Assembly: GCA_944336975.1 (NCBI GenBank)
Contig: CALVLH010000008.1
Span: 1 to 64,000 of the forward strand
Length of the DNA stretch: 64,000 nucleotides
DNA from: an uncultured Clostridia bacterium
GTDB lineage: Bacteria > Bacillota > Clostridia > Christensenellales > Borkfalkiaceae
Reading direction: 5' to 3'
Under the pieces are notes generated by a model, which saw nothing but the letters and a program-made list of their open reading frames with translations, made no database searches and was not told where the DNA came from. The position numbers and the translations under genes are program-made. This document shows positions 9,165-64,000 of this stretch, in pieces (within the stretch, counting starts at the first letter, position 1; each line of letters begins with the position of its first letter).

Positions 9165-9397
9165 GAGATTTCGAAAAAAAGTCAAAAAATATTTTGTGCG
9201 CTCATCGCTCCCGCGCGCCGAGCAACCGACGGACGCCCCGAGCTCGAACGACGCCGCGCCCGACGACGGGTTCCGTTCCGACCGCGCAGTCCTCTCCCGC
9301 CATGCCGAACCGCAACCCGAAGACAGAACACCCTATTGTGCCAATGACGAAGTTGCGCCAGCCGCGGAATCCCGCGGCGGGCGCAATCCTTGCCGAC

Positions 9398-9430
9398 AAA
9401 AAAACGGCAGACAACCGTCTGCCGTTTTTT
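9398..9430 (-). terminator. rpoBC terminator
   Basis: An 11-bp stem (9402-9412 with 9417-9427, loop AACC) has seven A residues on its left side, giving a U-tract on the minus strand. It lies 13 nt past the rpoC stop and ends the rpoBC operon. Confidence 0.93.
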
Positions 9431-9442
9431 GCATGTTTGCTG

Positions 9443-13222
<3,780 letters not shown>

Positions 13223-51025: not shown

Positions 51026-51766
51026 ATGGACGTAACCAATGCGGAACGATTTCTGAAAAGTTACAACAACATCGAAACCCAGCTCAAGATCCTCTACAAC
51101 GCCAAGGCGACGCAGAACTTTACCGATCTCGTCAAGCGCTGTACCGAGCTAGACATCACCGTCCGCCGATACGAAAACGAGCTTATCGACTACGGGAAAC
51201 TTCGCAACGCCATCGTGCATCGCTCGTCGGGCGGACGCGGGGAAACTGTCATCGCCGTGCCCTGCGACGAAGTCGTCGAACAGATCGAATTTATCGAAAA
51301 ACTGCTCTGTCATCCGCCGGGGATCATGGATGCGATCAAGGTCAAGAAGATCGCCTCCGTCTTTGCGGACAAGCCGCTGATCACCGCCGTGGACGCCTTT
51401 GCGGAAAACTGGCAGAAGACGCTCATCGTCTACGATCACGGCAGGATGTGCGGCGTGCTCAATTCTTACGGACTCTATCGCATTCTGGGAGAACGGGTGC
51501 GAGCGGGTGAGAACGTGACGCAATTTCTTTTGACCGCCCTCTGCCGTGACGTCCTCGACGAAAACGAGCTCGCTAAATACCGACTCGTGGGAAGAAGCTC
51601 GACGGTGTTCGAGATCTTCAAGGCGTTTGAGGAGCGAAAGGGGCTGCTCGCCGTCATCGTGACGGAGAACGGGCAGTTGGGCGAAAAGGCGATCAACATC
51701 ATCACCCCGTCCGATTTCCCCCGCATCAACCATTATCTGGAAACGTACAACGTCAAGCCGTTCTGA
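51026..51766 (+). CDS. CBS domain protein with HEPN-like N-terminal region
   Basis: The 246-residue protein has a helical N-terminal region (residues 1-95) and a C-terminal CBS pair (about 100-246, with LITAVDAFAENWQKTLIVYDHGRMCGVL and VFEIFKAFEERKGLLAVIVTENG). The helical part contains KLRNAIVHR, where R60 and H65 fit the R-x4-H motif of HEPN ribonuclease domains. CBS pairs usually bind adenosine nucleotides, so a nucleotide-controlled RNase is an attractive reading, but it is inference. AAGGAGG precedes the ATG. A low-GC transcription unit begins 104 nt downstream. Confidence 0.75.
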   Translation: MDVTNAERFLKSYNNIETQLKILYNAKATQNFTDLVKRCTELDITVRRYENELIDYGKLRNAIVHRSSGGRGETVIAVPCDEVVEQIEFIEKLLCHPPGIMDAIKVKKIASVFADKPLITAVDAFAENWQKTLIVYDHGRMCGVLNSYGLYRILGERVRAGENVTQFLLTALCRDVLDENELAKYRLVGRSSTVFEIFKAFEERKGLLAVIVTENGQLGEKAINIITPSDFPRINHYLETYNVKPF

Positions 51767-54490: not shown

Positions 54491-55372
54491 TCAGCCTTCG
54501 TTGCCGAAATTCAACACTTCTTCGCGCGCGGGCACGGACTGCGCCGCGCCGCGCCGCGTGCAGGCGATGCTCGCCGCTTTGCTCCCGAACGCCATCGCCT
54601 CTTCCAGGCTCTTCCCCGCCGCAAGCTGTGCCGCCAAACCGCCGCAGAGAGTATCCCCCGCCGCCGTCGTATCCACGGCTTTCACGCGGATACAGGGATA
54701 CCGCACGCTCCCGTTGCTATGGGCGATCTCATAGCCGTCGGCGCCGAGCGTCGTTGCGACCGTCCCTACGCCTGAGCGGAAGAGCTCCTCTTTGCCGCCG
54801 AGCAACTCCGCCTCGCTCTCGTTGGGGGTGATGAGATCGACGTAAGGAAGAAATTCCGCGATCGCCCGATCGGCGGGCGCGGGATTGAGGATGGTGTACA
54901 GTCCCGCCTCCTTTGCCTTTCTGAGCCCGTAACCGACGACGGGCACGGGATTTTCCAATTGCGTGAGATAGATGTCGCCCTCCCGCGCCTGAGCGAGAAC
55001 GCGGTCGATGTCTTCCCTGCTCAGTTGCGCATTTGCGCCCTTGTCGAGGATGATCCTGTTTTCCCCGCCCGTCACGAGGATGACCGCAATCCCCGTCGGG
55101 CAGTTTTGCGCGCGGCGGATACAGCGCGTATCCACGTTCGCCGCCCGCAGATTTTCCATGAGCTGCTCCCCGAACGCGTCGTCGCCGACGCATCCGCACA
55201 TCAGCACGCGGGCGCCGAGTTTACCCGCCGCCGTCGCCTGATTGGCGCCCTTGCCGCCGCCGTTGGTCATGAACCCGCTTCCCGTGAGTGTTTCCCCGCC
55301 GCGCGGGCAATAGGGCGCGTTGATGACGAGATCCATGTTCAGGCTTCCCGTCACGATCACCTTCCGTTGCAT
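54491..55372 (-). CDS. rbsK: Ribokinase (PfkB family)
   Basis: The 293-residue PfkB-family kinase has GSLNMDLVI at the start, NGGGKGANQATAAGKLGA near residue 37 (ribokinase signature 1) and DTTAAGDTLCGGLA near residue 230 (signature 2 with the catalytic Asp). These match RbsK, which makes ribose 5-phosphate in the cytoplasm. Other pentose or nucleoside kinases of the family are possible. It is the last gene of the operon. A terminator-like hairpin just upstream (55390-55437) suggests that it is expressed at a lower or regulated level. Confidence 0.9.
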   Translation of the reverse strand: MQRKVIVTGSLNMDLVINAPYCPRGGETLTGSGFMTNGGGKGANQATAAGKLGARVLMCGCVGDDAFGEQLMENLRAANVDTRCIRRAQNCPTGIAVILVTGGENRIILDKGANAQLSREDIDRVLAQAREGDIYLTQLENPVPVVGYGLRKAKEAGLYTILNPAPADRAIAEFLPYVDLITPNESEAELLGGKEELFRSGVGTVATTLGADGYEIAHSNGSVRYPCIRVKAVDTTAAGDTLCGGLAAQLAAGKSLEEAMAFGSKAASIACTRRGAAQSVPAREEVLNFGNEG

Positions 55373-55389
55373 CTTTTATCCTCCTTCCG

Positions 55390-55437
55390 AAAAAAACGCT
55401 TCCCCTACCGCGCGGCTGACCGCCTTTCGGGGAAGCG
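55390..55437 (-). terminator. Internal terminator/attenuator before ribokinase
   Basis: CGCTTCCCC (55397-55405) pairs with GGGGAAGCG (55429-55437), followed on the minus strand by seven U residues. It ends directly in front of the ribokinase ribosome site. A second hairpin (arms 55452-55460 and 55487-55495) precedes it. Confidence 0.75.
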
Positions 55438-55519
55438 CCCTATGTTCAGTACGTCGGAATGCGGCGGGGCGCCGCGTCAGGGGAGAATTCCGACGCCCTG
55501 CACGCACATCCGATCGGGC

Positions 55520-57742
55520 TTATTTGCTGCCCTTACCCTTCTTCTTCAAAAGGACGACGGCGACGATCACGCCCGCGACGACGACCACGCCGACCACGCT
55601 GAGAACGACGGGCAGCACCCATGCGTTATTCGCGTCGGGATCGGTGGGATCTGCGGGATCGGAAGGACCGTCCGTTCCGCCCGCATTGACCGTGACGGCG
55701 TAGGACGCGACTTCCGTTCCGTCCTTGACGACGGACACCGTGTAACCGCTCTTCATATCGCCGGAGGTGACGGCATTGCCGTCCGCGTCTTTGATCGTCA
55801 TGGTATAACCGGGTGCCGCATACACTGCGTCGGTAAATTCGGAGACCGTCATCGCCTTTCCGATCGTGATGCCCGTTGCGGTAACGGTGACGTCCGAACT
55901 CGTATTGACGATCGCCTGCGAATAATCGTCGTTATTTTCTTCCACGGAAAGTTCTTCCATGCTCGTCTTATACATGGACACGCCGCCGATCTGCACGCCG
56001 CCCTGGAATATGTTGTTCTCGACGCCGCCTTCGAAGCCGACAAACACCGAATACGTTCCCGCCGTTTCCGCCGTGAAGATGAGGTTGACGGGCATATAAG
56101 CGTCGTCGCGCTCGAAGCGCACGTTCTGTTTTGCGACAACGGTGAGGTTATCCGTCGAATCATCCGCGTAAAGCGCCTCGCTGACCGATTCGTCGTCCCC
56201 TTCGATCACCATGACCGTGACGGGAGAATACAATCCGTCATAAGCCGCGGACGCGCCGGAAATGAGATAGGTGCGCATATATGCGGTGATCTTATACATC
56301 TGACCAGCTTCGAGCGTGACGCTCTGCACGATGCCGTCGTAAGGCGACCACTGGCTCAGCCAAATATCGCCTTGGGAGACGTATGCCTTGCCGTCCGCGC
56401 CGCCCGCTTCCCAGCCGAGCTGGCTGGATCCGCCGACTTCCCACCAACCGTCGCTGTTCTCTTCCAGCGCTCCGTTCGTGAGCAGGTTGGTCTTTCCTTC
56501 GGGCAGATCGAGCGCCGTCTTGAAGAAATAACATTCGTCCACATACAGCCCCGCGCCGTAGGTGCCGAAGCCCTTGGTCTCTACCTTCACGAAGGGATAG
56601 ACCGTCGTGTTCTCGCCGACGTTCGCCACGACGGAAGCGAGCATATATCTCGCGAGGGAGATGTCCGAGCCGTCGATGGTCTTCACGGTGAGGACGTCCT
56701 CCTGATTCTCCGCGAGGATCCCGATCTGGACCTTCTGCACGCCCGCCGTCGCCTTGACTTCGCCCCACTTGGAGAAGTTTGCATAGAAGGCGTAATTGGA
56801 ACCCGCCTCGACCGTAACGGGCTGTCCGACGGTCATGGAACCTTCCGCGCCGGACTGCGCGACGAGGTACAGCGTGTTGCAGCCTTCGATCTGTTTATCC
56901 TGCATATTCGAGCCGGGAACGTATGCGCTCGTCGTTCTCACGTCGTCGATTCCGGCGGAGAAACCCGTCGTCGTCTCGCCGATCTCCACCCAATCTTTGA
57001 GCGCGTTCGCGCTGGTGGAATCCTCGAAGCCCGCGTTTTTGAGCAGGTTTTCCGAACCCGTGGACACGATGTCCTGCGCATAGGTCACGGAAATGTCGTC
57101 GATGGTGACGTTCATCTTCTGTACGCGGACGTAGAAGCGGATGTTCGTCTCGTTGCCCGTCCTGATCCTCGCGCTGTACAAAGAATAGCCGTTGTGCGCC
57201 GACCAGCTCTCGTCCTCGTTCTGATAGATCTTGTCCTTATCGACGGAGTTATCCGCCCATCTGTGCTGTTCGCCGTAAATGGTCTCTTCCGCGCGTTCTT
57301 CGGACGCGAACCCGAAGAAGAGATTGGCGCTCGACATCGCCGTGTTGTTGTTCTTCACGCGGAGCGCGACATAGTACGTCGTGTTGGGAAGAACGGTGAT
57401 CTTCTGCGAGATCTCGGGATAGCCGCTGTCGTTGCCCGCGCCTTTGAGCGTGATCGCCTGCGATCCGCTGTGCGCGTCCGTCGAGACCTCCCAGCTTCCC
57501 TTTTCTCCCGCCGCTTCGGACGTGACGTCCATCGTCCATGCGCCCGTATCGTCCGCGGTCACGCCTTCGAAACTTCCGTCCTGAATGAGATTGGAAGTCA
57601 GAAGGGAATCTTCCGTTTCCTCGCTGACGCCCTGCGCAAACGCGGAAAGCGTCTGCGCGGCAGGGACTGCCGCGACCATCGCCGCCGCGAGCATCAAGCT
57701 CCCCGCGCCGAGTGCTGTCTTGCTCCGTTTCTTCGTTTTCAT
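55520..57742 (-). CDS. Surface protein with three CBM-like repeats
   Basis: The 740-residue protein has a signal peptide (residues 1-38), a C-terminal membrane helix (about 711-732) and a basic tail; no LPxTG motif is visible. Three repeats of CBM4/9-like beta-sandwich type start with related motifs: SNLIQDGSFEG (about 50), ENLLKNAGFED (about 225) and TNLLTNGALEE (about 412). Each ends in a strand such as VTIDDISV or GLYVDECYF. A small beta domain and a Thr/Asp/Pro linker lead to the anchor. It probably displays ligand-binding modules on the cell surface for the neighbouring enzymes and importer. The ligand is unknown. Confidence 0.82.
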   Translation of the reverse strand: MKTKKRSKTALGAGSLMLAAAMVAAVPAAQTLSAFAQGVSEETEDSLLTSNLIQDGSFEGVTADDTGAWTMDVTSEAAGEKGSWEVSTDAHSGSQAITLKGAGNDSGYPEISQKITVLPNTTYYVALRVKNNNTAMSSANLFFGFASEERAEETIYGEQHRWADNSVDKDKIYQNEDESWSAHNGYSLYSARIRTGNETNIRFYVRVQKMNVTIDDISVTYAQDIVSTGSENLLKNAGFEDSTSANALKDWVEIGETTTGFSAGIDDVRTTSAYVPGSNMQDKQIEGCNTLYLVAQSGAEGSMTVGQPVTVEAGSNYAFYANFSKWGEVKATAGVQKVQIGILAENQEDVLTVKTIDGSDISLARYMLASVVANVGENTTVYPFVKVETKGFGTYGAGLYVDECYFFKTALDLPEGKTNLLTNGALEENSDGWWEVGGSSQLGWEAGGADGKAYVSQGDIWLSQWSPYDGIVQSVTLEAGQMYKITAYMRTYLISGASAAYDGLYSPVTVMVIEGDDESVSEALYADDSTDNLTVVAKQNVRFERDDAYMPVNLIFTAETAGTYSVFVGFEGGVENNIFQGGVQIGGVSMYKTSMEELSVEENNDDYSQAIVNTSSDVTVTATGITIGKAMTVSEFTDAVYAAPGYTMTIKDADGNAVTSGDMKSGYTVSVVKDGTEVASYAVTVNAGGTDGPSDPADPTDPDANNAWVLPVVLSVVGVVVVAGVIVAVVLLKKKGKGSK

Positions 57743-57757
57743 AATATCCTCCTTATT

Positions 57758-59521
57758 TCATACGGTTTTCTGAAACGTAAAATCGTCCAGTCTGAGGTAA
57801 TCGGTCGCGTTCGCGCCCGTGAGCACCGCCCCGATGCGGAGCGTATCGTTGTTGCCCGAGTTGACGGTCATCGTGATCTTCACCCAGCCGTCTCCCGTCT
57901 CGCAGGCCTTGCTGCGGAGCAGATCGCCCGAGGCGTTCCATACGGCGAGGGACAGTTCGGATGCAAACCCTTCGCTCGCCTGTACCATGCACGTCAGTTC
58001 GTAATTGGTGTTCTTTTCGACGGAAACGCTGTTGTAGAGGTTGACCTCCGCGCCTGGCTTTGCCGTGAGCTTCACGTTGGAAAGCCCCGTATACGCCGTC
58101 TGCGCCATCCATTCCACGGACGTGTTCGCCTTGCTGTCCGAACTCCATCCGTTCGCGATCTGATTGGTGCAGCGCTCGAAGCCGGGATCGGCGATGGTGC
58201 GCATGCGGTCCATCTCTTCCTCCGTATACGTCATCAGTTCCATCGGTTCGGGATATTTGCTGTTCTTGTATTCTTCGATCTGCGCCGTCTTCGCTTCCTG
58301 CGGGATGACGAAGCTGAGCACGTCGTCCACATAAGCCACCTTACCGCCCTCGCGGACGACGATCTCTTCGAGCAGCTTCACGCAAAGCTCCACCGTTTCG
58401 TCGATCGTGCTCGAACAGTACTTGAATTTCTGATCCTCGATGAGCCCGTTTTTATAGCGGTCGTCCAATGCGGAATAGCCCTTGATCGCCGCGAGGATGC
58501 CGCCCGTCGCCGCCGCCGTCGAGTCGGAGTCGTTCGCGCAGGAGATGGTCAGCCGCATGGACTTGTCCATATCCTCTTCGCCGTACAAAAGCCCGATGAG
58601 GGTGAACGCCGAACACATCTTCGCGTCGAGCAGGATCCCGTCGTAAGGCCAGCCGATCCAGTTATATTCCTCGCTCAGGACATAGGTGGAATATACGTCG
58701 TTGAAGTTTTCCTGCGCGGTCATGCCTGCGTCGTAATTTTCGAGCACGTTGCGCACGACGAGCGCCGACCAGGAATCCTCGGGAATGGCATTGAGCCCCG
58801 CCTGAATGATCTCGCCGATGTCGTCGGTGAAGAACGCCGCGCCGTACATGGCAGAGATGAACTGCATGGAATAGATCCCGTCGCCGTAACAGCAGATCTC
58901 GGCGAATTTCTGGCACGTCTCGTTGAGGAAGCCCGTCATGTTCAGTCCCAGCAATCCGCTAAACGACGCACCGCACTGATAGCTGTTCCCGTCGGGGTAC
59001 GCGCCCGTCAGATAACTCGTCGAATACTTGGGATACCCTGAGAACGGAGGCGCGAACCCGCGCGCCAGGACGTCGTTGTTGGAGCCGTTCCAGAACTCGA
59101 AGTCCTTGTTGTACATATAGATGCCCAGCTCGCGGCTGGTCGCGTCCAGCCCGAGTTCGTTCAGCGCCTCGATCGCCGTCACCGTGAGGTAGACGTCGTC
59201 CTGCGTGTAAGCGTTCTGGATGATGTCGTCGTACCACCTCGGCAGCGAACTGTCGGGGATCCACGTCTTGTACCAGAACTCCACGGGATACCCGTATGCG
59301 ACGCCCGCCATCGTGCCGACGAGCGCTCCCTTCGCCTTATCGCGATAGGTATCGATCGAAAGCACGGACGTCGTCGCGGGCAGGTCAGCCGAAGAAAGTT
59401 TTTCGTATTTTTCCACGGGCGGATCCTCCTCTTCGGGCCGACAGGAAGCAAATGCCGCGCAACTTGCCGCGAGCATGGTCCCCGCCAAAGCCACACAAAC
59501 TGTTTTTCCGATGTTTTTCAT
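57758..59521 (-). CDS. Exported ADP-ribosylglycohydrolase-fold lipoprotein with CBM-like domain
   Basis: The 587-residue protein starts with an export signal and Cys residues fitting lipoprotein processing (Cys21 or Cys27). Residues 55-440 have the ARH/DraG fold: AKGALVGTMAGVAYGYPVEF, the acidic motif YTQDDVYLTVTAIEAL and the late metal motif CANDSDSTAAATGGILAAI. The C-terminal 130 residues (from IADPGFERC to LRLDDFTF) are a CBM-like sandwich resembling the repeats of the next protein. The second of two possible ATG codons was chosen because AAGGAG fits it; the first (59536) overlaps the upstream stop. ARH enzymes remove ADP-ribose or related ribosyl groups; the true substrate here is unknown. 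Confidence 0.85.
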   Translation of the reverse strand: MKNIGKTVCVALAGTMLAASCAAFASCRPEEEDPPVEKYEKLSSADLPATTSVLSIDTYRDKAKGALVGTMAGVAYGYPVEFWYKTWIPDSSLPRWYDDIIQNAYTQDDVYLTVTAIEALNELGLDATSRELGIYMYNKDFEFWNGSNNDVLARGFAPPFSGYPKYSTSYLTGAYPDGNSYQCGASFSGLLGLNMTGFLNETCQKFAEICCYGDGIYSMQFISAMYGAAFFTDDIGEIIQAGLNAIPEDSWSALVVRNVLENYDAGMTAQENFNDVYSTYVLSEEYNWIGWPYDGILLDAKMCSAFTLIGLLYGEEDMDKSMRLTISCANDSDSTAAATGGILAAIKGYSALDDRYKNGLIEDQKFKYCSSTIDETVELCVKLLEEIVVREGGKVAYVDDVLSFVIPQEAKTAQIEEYKNSKYPEPMELMTYTEEEMDRMRTIADPGFERCTNQIANGWSSDSKANTSVEWMAQTAYTGLSNVKLTAKPGAEVNLYNSVSVEKNTNYELTCMVQASEGFASELSLAVWNASGDLLRSKACETGDGWVKITMTVNSGNNDTLRIGAVLTGANATDYLRLDDFTFQKTV

Positions 59522-59532
59522 TCCCTTCTCCT

Positions 59533-61563
59533 TCATAGTTCCTTTATTTCAAACCGACCGAAACGGACGACGCTGCCGTTTCCGACATACGCGCCGACGC
59601 ACCCGTCGGTGATCGCCTCTTCGTCCGTGCAGACGAACATGATCTCCCCGTCCACGGCGGCGGAGATCTCCTTCCCCCGCGCCGTCACCGATATGCGGCA
59701 GGGCTTGCCCGAGGGCGGCGTCGCTTCCCGCTCCGCGAGCAGCGTTTCTCCGCCGTACACGCGCACAAGGCGCAGTTTTCCTCCCTCATAGGCGAGACGG
59801 TAATGCCTCCGCGCCCCGCGGACGCGGAAGAGGATGCCGAAATCGCCGCCGGAAGCGGGCGTCATCTCCGCCGCGAAAGAAAGATCTTTCATCGGCAACG
59901 ACGTATAAAGCTGTCCGTTGCCGAGACACCGTCCCGTGAGCTTGCCCTCTTCCAGCGTCCATACGCCGTCGTAATGGGTGCATTGCCGCACTTCCGTGTG
60001 TTCCAGCGAATACGCTTCCGTCTCTTCCGAAGAAAAGTCGATCTCGTAATCGGGTTTCCCCGTACAGGAGAGCTCTTCGAGGCGCACCTCGCCGCCCTCC
60101 TCCGTACGGACGGCGAGCCCGATCTTTCCGATCAGCGCCGTCTTTGCGACTTCGATCTTCCACTCCGTCGCGCCCTCTTCGGAAAAATACGTCTTTCCGC
60201 CGTGCAGATCCTCGCAGAACAGGCGCACCCGCGCGCCGCCCGCCGTGCGGTAGCGGGCGCGGATGGTCTGTCCGTTATACGCCTTGGGGGAAAAGGCGGG
60301 GTCGTAGCGATTGTCGTACAGATCTTCTTTCCGATAATATGTCTTGTAAAATACCTTGCCTTCGCGGCCGTTTGCGGAGACGATCTTCAACGCGCCGTCC
60401 GTATGGGCGATACGGGCGTCCGCGTCCGCACGCATCCCGCTCACCGAACGGGGAAGCGCGAAATCCACGCGCATCTCGTCCGCGCCGAAGCGGAGCGAGG
60501 ACGCATACTTTCCTTCGTACGTCTCCCCGCGCAGGCGGAGCGCCGAACGGAACACGTCGTAGGCGAAATTGGGGATGTTCACGATGTTGGCATAACCGAG
60601 CACGGAGGAACAGAGCGTTGTATCGCGGACGGGAGCGATCCAGGTATCGTAGTCAACCCCTTCCAGCGAGGTGAACACGCCCATGACCGTACCCAGGTTG
60701 CCGACGTTGCAGTCGGTATCGAAACCGCTGAAATTGGCGATCTTCAGCGTGCGGAGGAAATCCCCTTCCCCGTACAGCAAGGCGTATACCATGATCGCCG
60801 CGTTCGGGATGATGTGACAGTTCCCGCCGTATCGATCCTTCCAGTAATTGGCGCGGATGTAATCGAAGCACGCTTCCTGCGCGCCGCCTTCGCGGTAAAA
60901 GCGCATGAGATCGCGCACCGTTTTCGCATAACCGCTCTCCTTCGGGATGACGGACAGTCCCGCGAGCAGGATCTCTTCCACGCTCTTCGCGCCGAACGCC
61001 GCGCTGATCATCGCCGCGACGAAGCGCCCGCCGTCCGCGGCGACGCCGTCGTGCGAGACTCTCGCCGCCATCTCCGCAAGATCCGCCGCCCTGCGCTGAT
61101 CGTACGGGGAAACCAACCCCCACACGTCGCTGAAGATCTGCCCGCCGATCTGCTCCGCCATCGTCCTGCCGTTTTGCAGGATACTGCCGCTCATCGGCGG
61201 AAGGATGCCTTTTTGCAGGTTCAGATACGCCGTATGTTCTTCGGAAACTCCGTAGCCGCCCCACCAGTAAAAACCGTGCTGATACGGCACATAGTTGAGC
61301 CAGCATTCCGCAAGATCCGCGTACCCGTAACGGGAAAGATCGGGGCAGTCGCGCAGGGCGCGATAGAAGAAGACGGGACCGTTGCTGTCGTCGTCGGCGG
61401 CAAAGTCGTTGTAATCGACGAAGTATCCCTCTTTGCCCGCATATTTTTCGCGGATCTGCACATATTCCCACATCTCCACGGGAGCGCCGTAACGGATGCC
61501 GATCGTCTTGCCCAGCCAGCCGAAATATATTTTTTCCAGATCGTTGTCGTTTAACTTTTTCAC
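59533..61563 (-). CDS. Cytoplasmic ADP-ribosylglycohydrolase-fold protein with beta-sandwich domains
   Basis: The 676-residue protein lacks a signal peptide. Residues 1-340 are ARH-like: IYFGWLGKTIGIRYGAPVEMW, the acidic YNDFAADDDSNGP stretch and the conserved NFSGFDTDCNVGNLGTVMGVF motif with its metal-binding Asp pair. The second half consists of beta-rich domains. The last (from about 520, with SFAAEMTPASGGDFGILFRV and ISAAVDGEIMF) is like concanavalin/LamG-type modules. The start is a GTG at 61563 with a weak ribosome site, 13 nt after the permease stop. Sequence similarity to the lipoprotein enzyme downstream is low, so the two probably act on different forms of the substrate. Confidence 0.82.
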   Translation of the reverse strand: MKKLNDNDLEKIYFGWLGKTIGIRYGAPVEMWEYVQIREKYAGKEGYFVDYNDFAADDDSNGPVFFYRALRDCPDLSRYGYADLAECWLNYVPYQHGFYWWGGYGVSEEHTAYLNLQKGILPPMSGSILQNGRTMAEQIGGQIFSDVWGLVSPYDQRRAADLAEMAARVSHDGVAADGGRFVAAMISAAFGAKSVEEILLAGLSVIPKESGYAKTVRDLMRFYREGGAQEACFDYIRANYWKDRYGGNCHIIPNAAIMVYALLYGEGDFLRTLKIANFSGFDTDCNVGNLGTVMGVFTSLEGVDYDTWIAPVRDTTLCSSVLGYANIVNIPNFAYDVFRSALRLRGETYEGKYASSLRFGADEMRVDFALPRSVSGMRADADARIAHTDGALKIVSANGREGKVFYKTYYRKEDLYDNRYDPAFSPKAYNGQTIRARYRTAGGARVRLFCEDLHGGKTYFSEEGATEWKIEVAKTALIGKIGLAVRTEEGGEVRLEELSCTGKPDYEIDFSSEETEAYSLEHTEVRQCTHYDGVWTLEEGKLTGRCLGNGQLYTSLPMKDLSFAAEMTPASGGDFGILFRVRGARRHYRLAYEGGKLRLVRVYGGETLLAEREATPPSGKPCRISVTARGKEISAAVDGEIMFVCTDEEAITDGCVGAYVGNGSVVRFGRFEIKEL

Positions 61564-61576
61564 ATTCTTAACCGCT

Positions 61577-62455
61577 TTATTTTATTCCCGTGATCTTGAT
61601 GCCCTGCATGATGTATTTTTGCATGAGCATGAGGATCACCACGAGAGGGATGCAGGTGATCACGGTGGAAGCGAGGAGCATATCCCACGCCGTCCCCTGT
61701 GAATTCCTGAAATATGCAATTAACTGATTGACCTGATACAGGTTCGCGTTGCCGTGCACCGTCATGGACGGCCAGATGTAGGAATTCCAGAAACCCTGGA
61801 ATACGCTCATGCCCATGATGATGAAAGGCGTGACGGACATCGGAAGAAAGATGCGGACGTATATCCCGAAACGGGAGCATCCGTCCATGAGCGCCGCCTC
61901 CTCCAACGAACGCGGCATGCCGAGATAATACTGACGGTAAAAGAAGATGGACCACACATACGTCACGCCCGGCAGAATGAGCACGAGGAGATTGTTGAGC
62001 ATATTCAGCTTGCTGACGACGTAGTAACACGGGATGAGCGTGGCGATGCTCGGAACGAACATATTGACCGCATACATCGCCCACAGGAGCTTTTTCCCGG
62101 GGAATTCCAGACGGGCGAACGCATATGCCGCGAGGGAATTGACCGCCAGGCTCAGGACGAGCGCGATCACCGAGACGAGAAAGGTCATGCCCAGAGAACG
62201 CACAAAGGACACCCCGCGCGGGAAATAAACCGAATTGCCCGCAAACAGGTTGGCATAGTTTTCCGCCGTCCACTGTTTGGGGAAGAAATGGAAGGTGATG
62301 CTCTGGATCTCCGCCAACGGCTTGAACGAGGAGATCACCACCCACAAAAACGGAAACACGCTGCACACGAGAAGAATGATCCCCACGAGCCACATGAGCG
62401 CTGTTCCGACCGCCCGCATGACGACGGCTTTGTTCACTGTTTTGACGCGCTGCAT
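61577..62455 (-). CDS. ABC sugar-type transporter permease (MalG-like)
   Basis: The 292-residue CUT1-type permease has six predicted helices and the EAA loop that docks the ATPase (RSLEEAALMDGCSRFGIYVRIFLPM). The N-terminus with FKPLAEIQSITFHFFPKQWTAENYANLF is typical of MalG-like subunits. It works with the permease encoded 10 nt upstream. No ATPase gene is present in the operon; CUT1 systems of Firmicutes often share one encoded elsewhere. Confidence 0.92.
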   Translation of the reverse strand: MQRVKTVNKAVVMRAVGTALMWLVGIILLVCSVFPFLWVVISSFKPLAEIQSITFHFFPKQWTAENYANLFAGNSVYFPRGVSFVRSLGMTFLVSVIALVLSLAVNSLAAYAFARLEFPGKKLLWAMYAVNMFVPSIATLIPCYYVVSKLNMLNNLLVLILPGVTYVWSIFFYRQYYLGMPRSLEEAALMDGCSRFGIYVRIFLPMSVTPFIIMGMSVFQGFWNSYIWPSMTVHGNANLYQVNQLIAYFRNSQGTAWDMLLASTVITCIPLVVILMLMQKYIMQGIKITGIK

Positions 62456-62465
62456 ATTCCCCTCC

Positions 62466-63434
62466 TCAGTCGAGCGATTTTTCCGAACTCGTCAGTCGGA
62501 AGATGACGGACGAGAGCGCCGTGAGCACCACCGCGACGACGAGCGACGCCGCATACACTTCGCCCATGTTCTTGCTGTAATTGAACTGATAGTACAGATA
62601 ATAGATCGGGCCTTCCGTCGCGTGCATCGCACCGCTCCCGACGATCACGAGCGCGATCTCGTAAAGCTGGAAGGAACTGACGACGAGCGAGATGAGAAGA
62701 TACATCCCGATGTTTTTCAGGCACGGCAGAGTGATATACACCGTCTGTTGCCACCAGTTCGCGCCGTCCAGCTTCGCCGCCTCATAATAGTCGGAGGGAA
62801 TGTCGTGCAGCCCGCCGAGCATGATGAGGGTGGTATACCCCAGACCGTTCCACACCGCCGCGATACACACGGAGAACACCGCCCATCCGGGTTCGCCCGT
62901 CCAGTTGACTTTGGACAGCCCGAACATCTGCAAAACGCTGTTGAACAGCCCGCCGTCGTAATTGTAGAGGAAGGAAAAGATCGCCCCTACCACGATGCCT
63001 GAGATCAGACAGGGCAGATAAATGCAGACCTTGATGACCGCGGAGAATTTTGGATTGATCTTGACGATCAGATTCGCGATCAAAAAGGATAAAACGAGCT
63101 GCAAAGGAACGATGATCGCGATGTATTCCACCCCGACGAGGATGGAGCGATAGAACTCCGCGCTGATGCTCCCCGCCAGGATCTTGTGGTAATTGTCGAA
63201 CCAGACAAATACGTTTCCGAGATAATAGTTGACGTCGAACAGACTGAAATAGGCGGAAATGATGAGCGGAACGGTGATGAACAGCATCATGAGCACGAAC
63301 GACGGCAACAAACAGACATAAGCCGTGATCGCTTCGCCCTTCTTATATTTCCGTTTTTTCCGCGGCGCCTGCGCCGCTTCCGTCTGCGGCGCTTCGGCGA
63401 TGACGTCGGTATCGCGCACTTTCGATTGCGTCAT
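62466..63434 (-). CDS. ABC sugar-type transporter permease (MalF-like)
   Basis: The 322-residue CUT1-type permease has a basic N-terminal tail (residues 1-30), about six helices and the EAA loop YYEAAKLDGANWWQQTVYITLP. It is the partner of the MalG-like subunit. Transporters of this class import oligosaccharides or glycosides, and the neighbouring ARH-fold enzymes and ribokinase suggest a ribosyl compound. It lies 12 nt after the binding-protein gene. Confidence 0.92.
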   Translation of the reverse strand: MTQSKVRDTDVIAEAPQTEAAQAPRKKRKYKKGEAITAYVCLLPSFVLMMLFITVPLIISAYFSLFDVNYYLGNVFVWFDNYHKILAGSISAEFYRSILVGVEYIAIIVPLQLVLSFLIANLIVKINPKFSAVIKVCIYLPCLISGIVVGAIFSFLYNYDGGLFNSVLQMFGLSKVNWTGEPGWAVFSVCIAAVWNGLGYTTLIMLGGLHDIPSDYYEAAKLDGANWWQQTVYITLPCLKNIGMYLLISLVVSSFQLYEIALVIVGSGAMHATEGPIYYLYYQFNYSKNMGEVYAASLVVAVVLTALSSVIFRLTSSEKSLD

Positions 63435-63446
63435 GGCGTGCCCTCC

Positions 63447-64000
63447 TTATTTGTTGAACGGATTGGTTCCCTGCATGACCTCCGCTTCGATGAGGTTGTT
63501 CAGATCTTTTTCCAACGTTGCGAGCGTCGCGTCAACTTCCTTTCCGAGCTGCGTGACCGTTTCCAACGCGTCCGCATATTTCCTGGAAATCTCCCAGATG
63601 TATGCGGGTTCCGCCTTCGCATAGGGCAGGATGCTGTCGGAGACGAAATTATAGAACGGATCGGCGGACGCCTCCTCGTTGTTGCCGAGCGCTTCTTCCA
63701 CGCTCTTTCTCGCCGCAAACTTGGAATATCCGAGATCGCTCATGAATTCTTCCAGATGCGCGGTATCGCCGCCGAGCAGCCATTCGATGAACTGCCCGCA
63801 CTCTTCGGGATGCTTCGCGTTGCCGTCGATCGCCATGCCCCAGCCGCCCATCGCCGCGGTCGTCTTGCCTTCCGTCACGCCGTCGATCGTCGGGCATACC
63901 ACATAGCCGATGTCGGAAAGGATCTCGGGATAGTTGTTCTTGATCTGCCCGATCGACCACGAGCCGCCGAGCGCCATCGCGACGTGCCCTTCGGCAAGCG
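63447..64000 (-). CDS. ABC extracellular solute-binding protein (C-terminal part)
   Basis: The frame is open to the window edge, so only about the last 184 codons are seen. The sequence fits the C-terminal lobe of a CUT1 sugar-binding lipoprotein: LAEGHVAMALGGSWSIGQIK, then TTAAMGGWGMAIDGNAKHPEECGQFIEWLLGG, then a helical end. It should capture the substrate for the two permeases that follow 12 nt downstream. The start and signal peptide lie to the right of the window. Confidence 0.9.
   Translation of the reverse strand, partial: LAEGHVAMALGGSWSIGQIKNNYPEILSDIGYVVCPTIDGVTEGKTTAAMGGWGMAIDGNAKHPEECGQFIEWLLGGDTAHLEEFMSDLGYSKFAARKSVEEALGNNEEASADPFYNFVSDSILPYAKAEPAYIWEISRKYADALETVTQLGKEVDATLATLEKDLNNLIEAEVMQGTNPFNK

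What the first reader, a model, noticed from the sequence alone, without database searches (positions are those of the whole stretch)
54491..64000. Candidate ribosyl/ADP-ribosyl scavenging locus: ARH-fold enzymes, CBM surface protein, ABC importer and ribokinase
Seen directly: seven co-directional genes with small gaps encode a binding protein, two CUT1 permeases, a cytoplasmic ARH-fold enzyme, an exported ARH-fold lipoprotein with a CBM-like domain, an anchored protein with three CBM-like repeats, and a ribokinase. Known: ARH/DraG enzymes cleave ADP-ribosyl bonds with metal-binding acidic motifs, which both proteins keep, and ribokinase phosphorylates free ribose. Inference: the cell cuts a ribosylated compound outside, imports a ribosyl glycoside, cuts it again inside and phosphorylates ribose. 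As I recall it, the ribose-utilisation locus of Bacteroides thetaiotaomicron also joins ribokinases with hydrolases of this kind. An ABC-type version with CBM scaffolding in a Firmicute would be new to me.
Basis: partly seen in the sequence, partly recalled or inferred. Interest (0 to 1): 0.78.

Follow-up and report, generated by a model that had tools for sequence, protein, structure and literature searches.

The report
ARH-fold operon for ribosyl compounds
An unnamed bacterium carries a self-contained operon that seems to bind, cut and import an unknown sugar conjugate with two enzymes of the ADP-ribosyl-hydrolase fold, and comparison with relatives suggests that the sugar freed is ribose, although no substrate has been shown.

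Summary
The genes are real: a lacI-controlled minus-strand operon of binding protein, two sugar-type permeases, cytoplasmic ARH enzyme, exported ARH lipoprotein, anchored binding-domain protein and ribokinase (lacI and the binding protein's 5' part lie beyond the window). Both ARH proteins keep the acidic metal ligands and match ARH3/DraG/MJ1187 folds. The ribokinase stands behind a terminator-like hairpin and is absent from two orthologous operons (G343, G155), but closes the operon in three (own, G362, G379); G379's comes from another ribokinase clade. The LacI box occurs exactly three times in the genome, all at this locus, none at rbsK. Of 80 loci of relatives of the cytoplasmic ARH, 39 hold a ribokinase-type gene (same strand, within 6 kb; none in 488 kb further out) and 18 others nucleoside-transport or nucleoside-processing genes. 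So the ribosyl reading is supported for the family and fairly supported here; ADP-ribose as substrate is not. Against it: GH65, GH2 or GH123 genes beside some relatives, two of them near kin, and 23 loci with neither gene set. Precedents: E. coli yegTUV and, recalled, a Bacteroides ribose locus. New variant of a known kind; no activity tested.

The parts
63447..64000 (-). solute-binding protein of a sugar-type ABC importer; the gene runs on to 64796, outside the window
   Evidence: Pfam SBP_bac_8/SBP_bac_1; full frame 449 aa
62466..63434 (-). ABC permease 1 (UgpA/MalF-like; the label CUT1 is recalled)
   Evidence: BPD_transp_1 1.1e-16; best NCBIfam UgpA, below its cut-off
61577..62455 (-). ABC permease 2 (UgpE/MalG-like)
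   Evidence: BPD_transp_1 4.7e-13; best NCBIfam UgpE, below its cut-off
59533..61563 (-). cytoplasmic ARH-fold enzyme (676 aa) with C-terminal CBM66-like domain; no signal peptide seen; likely ligands E30, D57-D58-D59, D282, D284
   Evidence: PF03747 3e-48; model mean pLDDT 94.7; Foldseek TM by target: 1t5j 0.75, ARH3 to 0.70, DraG to 0.70, CBM66 to 0.84; these residues invariant in 56 sequences
57758..59536 (-). exported ARH-fold lipoprotein (592 aa) with C-terminal CBM4/16/61-like domain; likely ligands E86, D113, D114, D336, D338
   Evidence: PF03747 3.6e-18; Foldseek 1t5j 0.71, ARH3 to 0.68 on a model of mean pLDDT 65.9; residue numbers; kept in 5 of 5 orthologues aligned, own included
55520..57742 (-). 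surface protein with carbohydrate-binding-like domains and a C-terminal membrane anchor
   Evidence: CBM_4_9 7.6e-05, below cut-off; hhalign probabilities D1-D2 94.5%, lipoprotein C-term-D2 96.3%, -D1 87.6%, -D3 32.6%; hydrophobic stretch and basic tail read from the sequence
55397..55438 (-). terminator-like hairpin followed by seven T, between the surface-protein gene and rbsK
   Evidence: -28.1 kcal/mol for the stretch with its T run; a hairpin also follows the surface-protein gene in G343, G155, G362 and G379
54491..55372 (-). ribokinase-type kinase (PfkB family), last gene, 24 bases behind the hairpin
   Evidence: PF00294 1.3e-63; TIGR02152 293.2 bits against a cut-off of 299.65; best solved matches are ribokinases; present at this place in G362 and G379, absent in G343 and G155

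Best explanation
It is a locally regulated operon for taking up and breaking down a ribosyl-containing conjugate. A LacI repressor binds the box TGTAAACGTTTACA at its own gene and before the binding-protein gene and leaves when inducer is present (box shown, binding inferred). The anchored protein and the lipoprotein hold the extracellular substrate through related domains (domains shown, binding inferred). The exported ARH enzyme trims it with a two-metal site (fold and ligands shown, activity inferred). The ABC importer, whose ATPase must come from elsewhere, brings in a small glycoside (inferred). The cytoplasmic ARH enzyme cuts that glycoside and frees ribose (inferred from the neighbours of its relatives). 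Ribokinase, probably made at a lower level because a hairpin precedes its gene, phosphorylates the ribose (kinase family shown, level inferred). The bond cut is more likely a riboside than an ADP-ribosyl bond.
For: Kinases matching the window's rbsK in 39 of 80 loci of the cytoplasmic ARH family: 44 copies, all same strand, all within 6 kb, 0 in 488 kb of outer flank, 18 loci within 100 bases. Nucleoside genes (Bmp-type ABC, nucleoside hydrolase, adenosine deaminase) in 18 more, together 57 of 80; at 70% identity 11 + 10 of 32 clusters. LacI-PfkB fusion protein beside the ARH in L031. The 39 kinases and the window's, 40 of 40, match both ribokinase models at E 1e-20 or better, with N12, D14, G39-G42, N44, E140, D240 invariant. 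A different ARH subfamily in G003, G093, G113 also sits between a Bmp-type ABC set and a ribokinase. In this operon rbsK is last gene in own, G362 and G379, from two kinase clades. LacI box: 3 exact copies in the own genome, all at the locus; also before the binding-protein gene in G343 and G155 and at two places in G362.
Against: rbsK is missing behind the surface-protein gene in G343 and G155. It has no LacI box within 2 mismatches and lies behind a terminator-like hairpin. In G379, which has rbsK, the box was not found in the form searched. Near kin have glycan genes nearby: GH2 upstream in G155, SASA esterase and GH123 in G316. Four of 80 loci pair the ARH with GH65 and a beta-phosphoglucomutase-type gene, a hexose setting (Pfam/NCBIfam tested in L042 and L045; the others by clustering or blastp). 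In 23 of 80 loci neither gene set was found, 6 of them under 9 kb. A ribokinase-like sequence need not mean ribose in vivo (PMC13432705, passages). No activity was measured.
Confidence: 0.55

Rival explanations
1. The operon degrades a glycan whose sugar is not ribose. ARH folds here work as ordinary glycosidases on some furanoside or hexoside, and the ribokinase is a frequent but separate neighbour or serves a side product.
For: GH2, GH123 and SASA near close relatives; GH65 in 4 of 80 loci; rbsK absent in 2 of 5 operons; surface domains like CBM4/16/61/66, whose solved relatives include binders of galactan, xylan and other polymers by their titles. Other ARH proteins of about 515-530 aa lie in what look like glycan clusters in the same order (most neighbours named by eye, not tested).
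Against: Ribokinase-type or nucleoside genes beside 57 of 80 relatives; kinases of two clades at the end of this very operon.
Confidence: 0.27
2. True ADP-ribosyl scavenging: the lipoprotein removes ADP-ribose or ribose from ADP-ribosylated proteins or nucleotides outside, and the inner enzyme cuts the imported fragment.
For: Both enzymes belong to PF03747 and match ARH3, DraG and MJ1187; acidic ligands kept.
Against: Neither protein reaches a curated ADP-ribosyl hydrolase model: Tri1 28.3 bits against 490 for the lipoprotein, no NCBIfam match up to E 0.01 for the cytoplasmic one. By alignment the Thr of the metal site is Asp in the cytoplasmic and Gln in the exported enzyme. No phosphatase or nucleotidase for the ADP part among the operon's genes. 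A sugar-type importer is an unlikely door for ADP-ribose (inference).
Confidence: 0.1
3. The inner ARH is a nucleoside or modified-nucleoside N-ribohydrolase and the operon feeds on nucleosides or RNA fragments.
For: Bmp-type transporters, nucleoside hydrolase, adenosine deaminase and nucleoside deoxyribosyltransferases beside relatives.
Against: Those genes are absent from the window's operon; where a nucleoside hydrolase is present the ARH would be redundant unless it cuts another bond; the window's importer is of the sugar type.
Confidence: 0.08

Closest known systems
E. coli K-12 yegTUV operon with regulator GgaR (YegW)
   Same: Transporter predicted to be of the nucleoside:H+ symporter family + ARH-family protein + PfkB-type kinase under a dedicated repressor (annotation; PMC10819704, abstract and passages). 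YegV aligns to the window's kinase at 24%.
   Different: No ABC importer, no exported ARH, no binding-domain protein; YegU aligns to short ARH proteins of the 80 loci at about 22-26% but only at E 0.03 or worse to the window's two. GgaR is reported to sense ADP-glucose; gene functions are unknown.
Bacteroides thetaiotaomicron ribose-utilisation locus (BT2803-BT2809)
   Same: Ribokinase with hydrolases and an outer-surface uptake system for ribosyl nutrients (recalled; one table line in PMC10434189 lists ribokinase, TonB-dependent receptor, SusD-type protein, DUF4969 protein, nucleoside hydrolase and DMT permease).
   Different: SusC/D-type uptake instead of ABC; that the DUF4969 protein is the ARH is recalled only. 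The primary paper (Glowacki 2020) is not held and was not read.
ARH1/ARH3/DraG/Tri1 ADP-ribosyl hydrolases
   Same: Fold and acidic metal ligands.
   Different: Thr ligand replaced, extra CBM-like domains, one member exported, setting of sugar uptake.
Loci with a Bmp-type ABC, nucleoside hydrolase or adenosine deaminase and an ARH of the same family
   Same: Same ARH family, salvage setting, 18 of 80 loci.
   Different: Other transporter class; no ribokinase-type gene within the searched range in those 18 loci.

Membership tests
ARH / ADP-ribosylglycohydrolase fold family (PF03747) | curated Pfam cut-off (26.2 bits) | tested here: met
   165.4 and 66.7 bits; 56 of 56 aligned relatives match at E 0.001
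ARH / ADP-ribosylglycohydrolase fold family (PF03747) | all-helical ARH fold | tested here: met
   for the cytoplasmic enzyme (pLDDT 94.7; the first ranks there are matches to its C-terminal part); for the lipoprotein on a weaker model
ARH / ADP-ribosylglycohydrolase fold family (PF03747) | metal ligands Glu, Thr-Asp-Asp, Asp-x-Asp-Thr (motif as recalled for ARH3) | tested here: inconclusive
   Glu and the four Asp kept; by alignment the first Thr is Asp57 (cytoplasmic) or Gln112 (exported), the last Thr is Cys285 or Ser339
ADP-ribosyl hydrolases (ARH1, ARH3, DraG, Tri1) as enzymes | hydrolysis of ADP-ribosyl bonds | not testable with these tools
   needs purified enzyme
ADP-ribosyl hydrolases (ARH1, ARH3, DraG, Tri1) as enzymes | NCBIfam equivalog for Tri1 | tested here: not met
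   28.3 bits against 490 for the lipoprotein; no match up to E 0.01 for the cytoplasmic enzyme
Ribokinase (RbsK) | TIGR02152 equivalog cut-off 299.65 | tested here: not met
   293.2 bits, just below, hence 'ribokinase-type'; best solved matches are ribokinases
Ribokinase (RbsK) | ribose-contact and catalytic residues (positions recalled from E. coli RbsK) | tested here: met
   N12, D14, G39-G42 with K41, N44, E140, D240 invariant in 40 kinases
Sugar-type (CUT1) ABC importer | binding protein and two permeases of sugar type | tested here: met
Sugar-type (CUT1) ABC importer | ATPase in the operon | tested here: not met
   none among the operon's genes; a shared genomic ATPase is usual for the type (recalled) and was not searched for
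Bacteroides-type ribose utilisation locus | SusC/SusD outer-membrane pair | tested here: not met
   no such gene in the operon

The most novel reading that the evidence does not exclude
The ARH fold holds a large, unrecognised class of true riboside glycosidases, some on the cell surface, that cut ribose from extracellular polymers or conjugates rather than removing ADP-ribose signals; this operon would be a complete ABC-type version with its own repressor, binding domains, importer and a repeatedly recruited ribokinase.
Probability: 0.35. Interest if true: 0.8.

Novelty: new variant of a known kind. Interest (0 to 1): 0.58.

Why it matters
Proteins of the ARH fold are annotated by default as reversers of ADP-ribosylation. 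The family studied here is tied instead to ribokinase-type and nucleoside genes in 57 of 80 loci (records named mostly as Bacillota, with two Spirochaetales MAGs), so many such annotations may be misleading, and a class of sugar-cutting enzymes may be missing from carbohydrate databases. The operon gives a compact test case: two enzymes, one inducer box, one kinase. It also bears on E. coli yegTUV, whose gene functions are reported as unknown.

Tried and rejected
Rejected: that rbsK is just an unrelated neighbour. After G343 showed the operon without it this looked likely, but the genus-wide search brought G362 and G379, which have it. Rejected: that the inner hairpin sequence is a repeated element; its core was found once in the window plus the rest of L021 and not in L174, L175 or L250 (the rest of the genome was not searched). 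Led nowhere: promoter scan (2 found, 3.5 expected) and terminator scan (11 found, 9.7 expected), the latter limited to loops of 3-8 and so blind to this hairpin; Rfam and tRNA scans of the window, 0 each. Literature: DUF4387 with AtuA, 0 papers; ARH with polysaccharide utilization, 0 papers; ARH with ribokinase and ribose, 1 paper, and with nucleoside hydrolase and Bacteroides, the same 1 (passages). Broader searches listed only 20 of 24, 20 of 823, 8 of 347 and 15 of 66 papers; no ARH-ribokinase-ABC locus showed in those listings. One search gave the yegTUV paper. Most subscription papers are not in this library. Plain sequence search of the two ARH proteins in the PDB gave one chance match and one weak Tri1 match; the profile search did better. 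Gene calls in fetched loci are longest-frame calls, partly wrong in high-GC loci; counts of named neighbours rest on blastp of all frames.
Full report
What is there. The binding protein continues to 64796 outside the window and is preceded by a lacI gene at 65015-66070. Gaps from the binding protein to the surface protein are 12, 10, 13, -4 and 15 bases; rbsK follows after 147. PF03747 has two matches in the own genome, both here; PfkB has nine.

The two ARH enzymes. The cytoplasmic one (59533-61563, 676 aa) gave a model of mean pLDDT 94.7 from 56 aligned sequences. Foldseek's first ranks are matches to its C-terminal beta domains; its N-terminal part matches MJ1187 (1t5j, TM by target 0.75), ARH3 (to 0.70) and DraG (to 0.70), and its C-terminal end CBM66 of a Bacillus levanase (to 0.84); a profile search agrees. 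Invariant in 56 sequences are E30, D57, D58, D59, D282, T283, D284, C285. The exported one (57758-59536) has a lipobox-type start (read from the sequence) and a weaker model (mean pLDDT 65.9), but still matches 1t5j (0.71) and ARH3 (to 0.68), and CBM4/16/61-type modules at its C-terminus. Its Glu (E86), Asp-Asp (113-114) and Asp-x-Asp (336-338) are kept in the 5 orthologues aligned, own included. In both enzymes the Thr of the first recalled ARH metal motif is replaced (Asp, Gln).

Surface binding. Profile comparison relates the lipoprotein's C-terminal domain to domain 2 (96.3%) and domain 1 (87.6%) of the anchored protein, and domains 1 and 2 to each other (94.5%); domain 3 is doubtful (17.1% and 3.7% to domains 1 and 2, 32.6% to the lipoprotein). 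The simplest reading is that both surface proteins hold the same ligand (inference).

Regulation. A perfect palindrome TGTAAACGTTTACA lies twice before the binding-protein gene and once at the start of lacI; these are the only exact copies in the own genome as held. It also stands before the binding-protein gene in G343 and G155 and at two places in G362. In G379, whose whole operon was scanned on one strand for TGTAAACGT(T/A)TACA, none was found; the G333 and G349 contigs do not reach the promoter. The window holds no copy within two mismatches, so rbsK has none of its own.

Is rbsK part of it? Six of 103 genomes of the genus, own included, held the lipoprotein at E 1e-20, and outside the genus G155 has a 43% orthologue. 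These seven operons were examined. In five the stretch behind the surface-protein gene is visible: rbsK is there in the own genome, G362 (66%) and G379 (46%); it is absent in G343, where MscS follows after about 380-457 bases, by the start chosen, and in G155, where a convergent gene follows. For G155 the surface protein lies on another contig than the rest of the operon, both cut at their ends. In G333 and G349 the contig ends first. G343, G155 and G316 have other ribokinase-like genes elsewhere, in G343 counterparts of two others of the own genome. In a tree of 31 kinases the window's rbsK groups with G362's (98/97), while G379's lies in another starred clade with G152, G146 and G128. So a ribokinase was either recruited to this place twice or replaced by another ribokinase; both speak for a functional link. 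A hairpin stands between the two genes in all three rbsK-bearing operons, with a T run behind it in the own genome and G379 and an A run in G362. In the window only 24 bases separate hairpin and start codon, which leaves no room for a promoter between them, so read-through is likely (inference).

The wider family. One scan of genome contigs with the cytoplasmic enzyme, blind to neighbours, confirmed 86 stretches and kept the best 80 as loci. A kinase matching the window's rbsK at 1e-8 is in 39 of 80: 44 copies, all same strand, all within 6 kb (842 kb searched), 0 in the outer 488 kb; 18 loci have it within 100 bases. One kinase from each of the 39 loci and the window's, 40 of 40, match both ribokinase models at E 1e-20 or better; which lie above the curated cut-off was shown only for the window's, which lies just below. 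Eighteen further loci hold a Bmp-type ABC (16), a nucleoside hydrolase (11) or an adenosine deaminase (7) on the same strand within 6.5 kb, none of them with the kinase; for the nucleoside hydrolase 5 of 16 copies lay beyond 6 kb, so that link is looser. In all 57 of 80 hold one or the other and 23 neither, of which 6 are under 9 kb. One of the 23, L097, does hold two nucleoside deoxyribosyltransferase genes. Close relatives inflate such counts; at 70% identity the 80 fall into 32 clusters, 11 with kinase, 10 with nucleoside genes, 2 with GH65, 9 with none of these, and at 60% into 13: 2 kinase, 7 nucleoside, 1 mixed, 3 none. AtuA (PF07287) and DUF4387 genes accompany the ARH in 29 loci and remain unexplained. 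In a tree of the ARH proteins kinase and nucleoside settings recur in several clades. G003 (same genus), G093 and G113 (same order) hold another ARH subfamily between a Bmp-type ABC set and a ribokinase. The reverse does not hold: of 16 stretches around ribokinases of the order looked at, ARH genes showed in 2.

Against. In the ARH tree, made before G343, G362 and G379 were found, the window's protein is on a long branch with G155 and G316. G155 has a GH2 gene upstream of lacI; G316 has an SASA esterase and a GH123 gene in front of its ARH on a 4.9 kb contig. Four loci have GH65 with a beta-phosphoglucomutase-type gene (families tested in L042 and L045; the others by clustering and blastp). 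These leave a glycan without ribose possible.

Known precedents. E. coli yegTUV joins a nucleoside-type transporter, an ARH protein and a PfkB kinase; a 2024 paper reports that GgaR represses it and answers to ADP-glucose, with gene functions unknown (PMC10819704, abstract and passages). A 2026 paper warns that ribose kinase activity of a PfkB enzyme may be a side activity (PMC13432705, abstract and passages). The Bacteroides ribose locus is recalled, with one table line seen (PMC10434189, passages); PMC11697453 was opened for it and only cites the primary paper (passages).

Verdict. The ribosyl reading is the best one (0.55), ADP-ribose as substrate is unlikely (0.1), and a non-ribose glycan is the main rival (0.27). 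No enzyme activity, binding or induction has been tested.

Noticed in passing
L031, L032, L033, L034, L036 (upstream of the ARH gene or of its importer genes): A LacI regulator fused to a PfkB kinase domain in one protein of about 620-650 aa (domains tested in L031; the others by clustering).
   Followed up: partly
29 of 80 loci, for example L082:4789-6476: An AtuA-family gene followed by a DUF4387 gene beside the ARH genes; role unknown.
   Followed up: partly
L092, L096, L097, L099: Two adjacent nucleoside deoxyribosyltransferase genes downstream of the ARH gene (Pfam in L097; the rest by clustering).
   Followed up: no
L149, L112, L108 and others: A further ARH subfamily of about 515-530 aa lies in what look like glycan-degradation clusters in the same order (families of neighbours not tested).
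   Followed up: no
L055:2994-4031 and kin: Short ARH paralogues with Gln in place of the first Asp of the second metal motif, perhaps inactive.
   Followed up: no
window 51026-51766: A protein with weak HEPN (RiboL-PSP) and CBS matches, both below cut-off, conserved in G343 and G034.
   Followed up: no
L021 (own contig 74671-79998): Very long repetitive surface-type reading frame beyond the window.
   Followed up: no
L250 (G343), 9347-9805: Where the own genome has rbsK, G343 has a few hundred bases with repeated GAAAGGACAAAAAG-like units.
   Followed up: no
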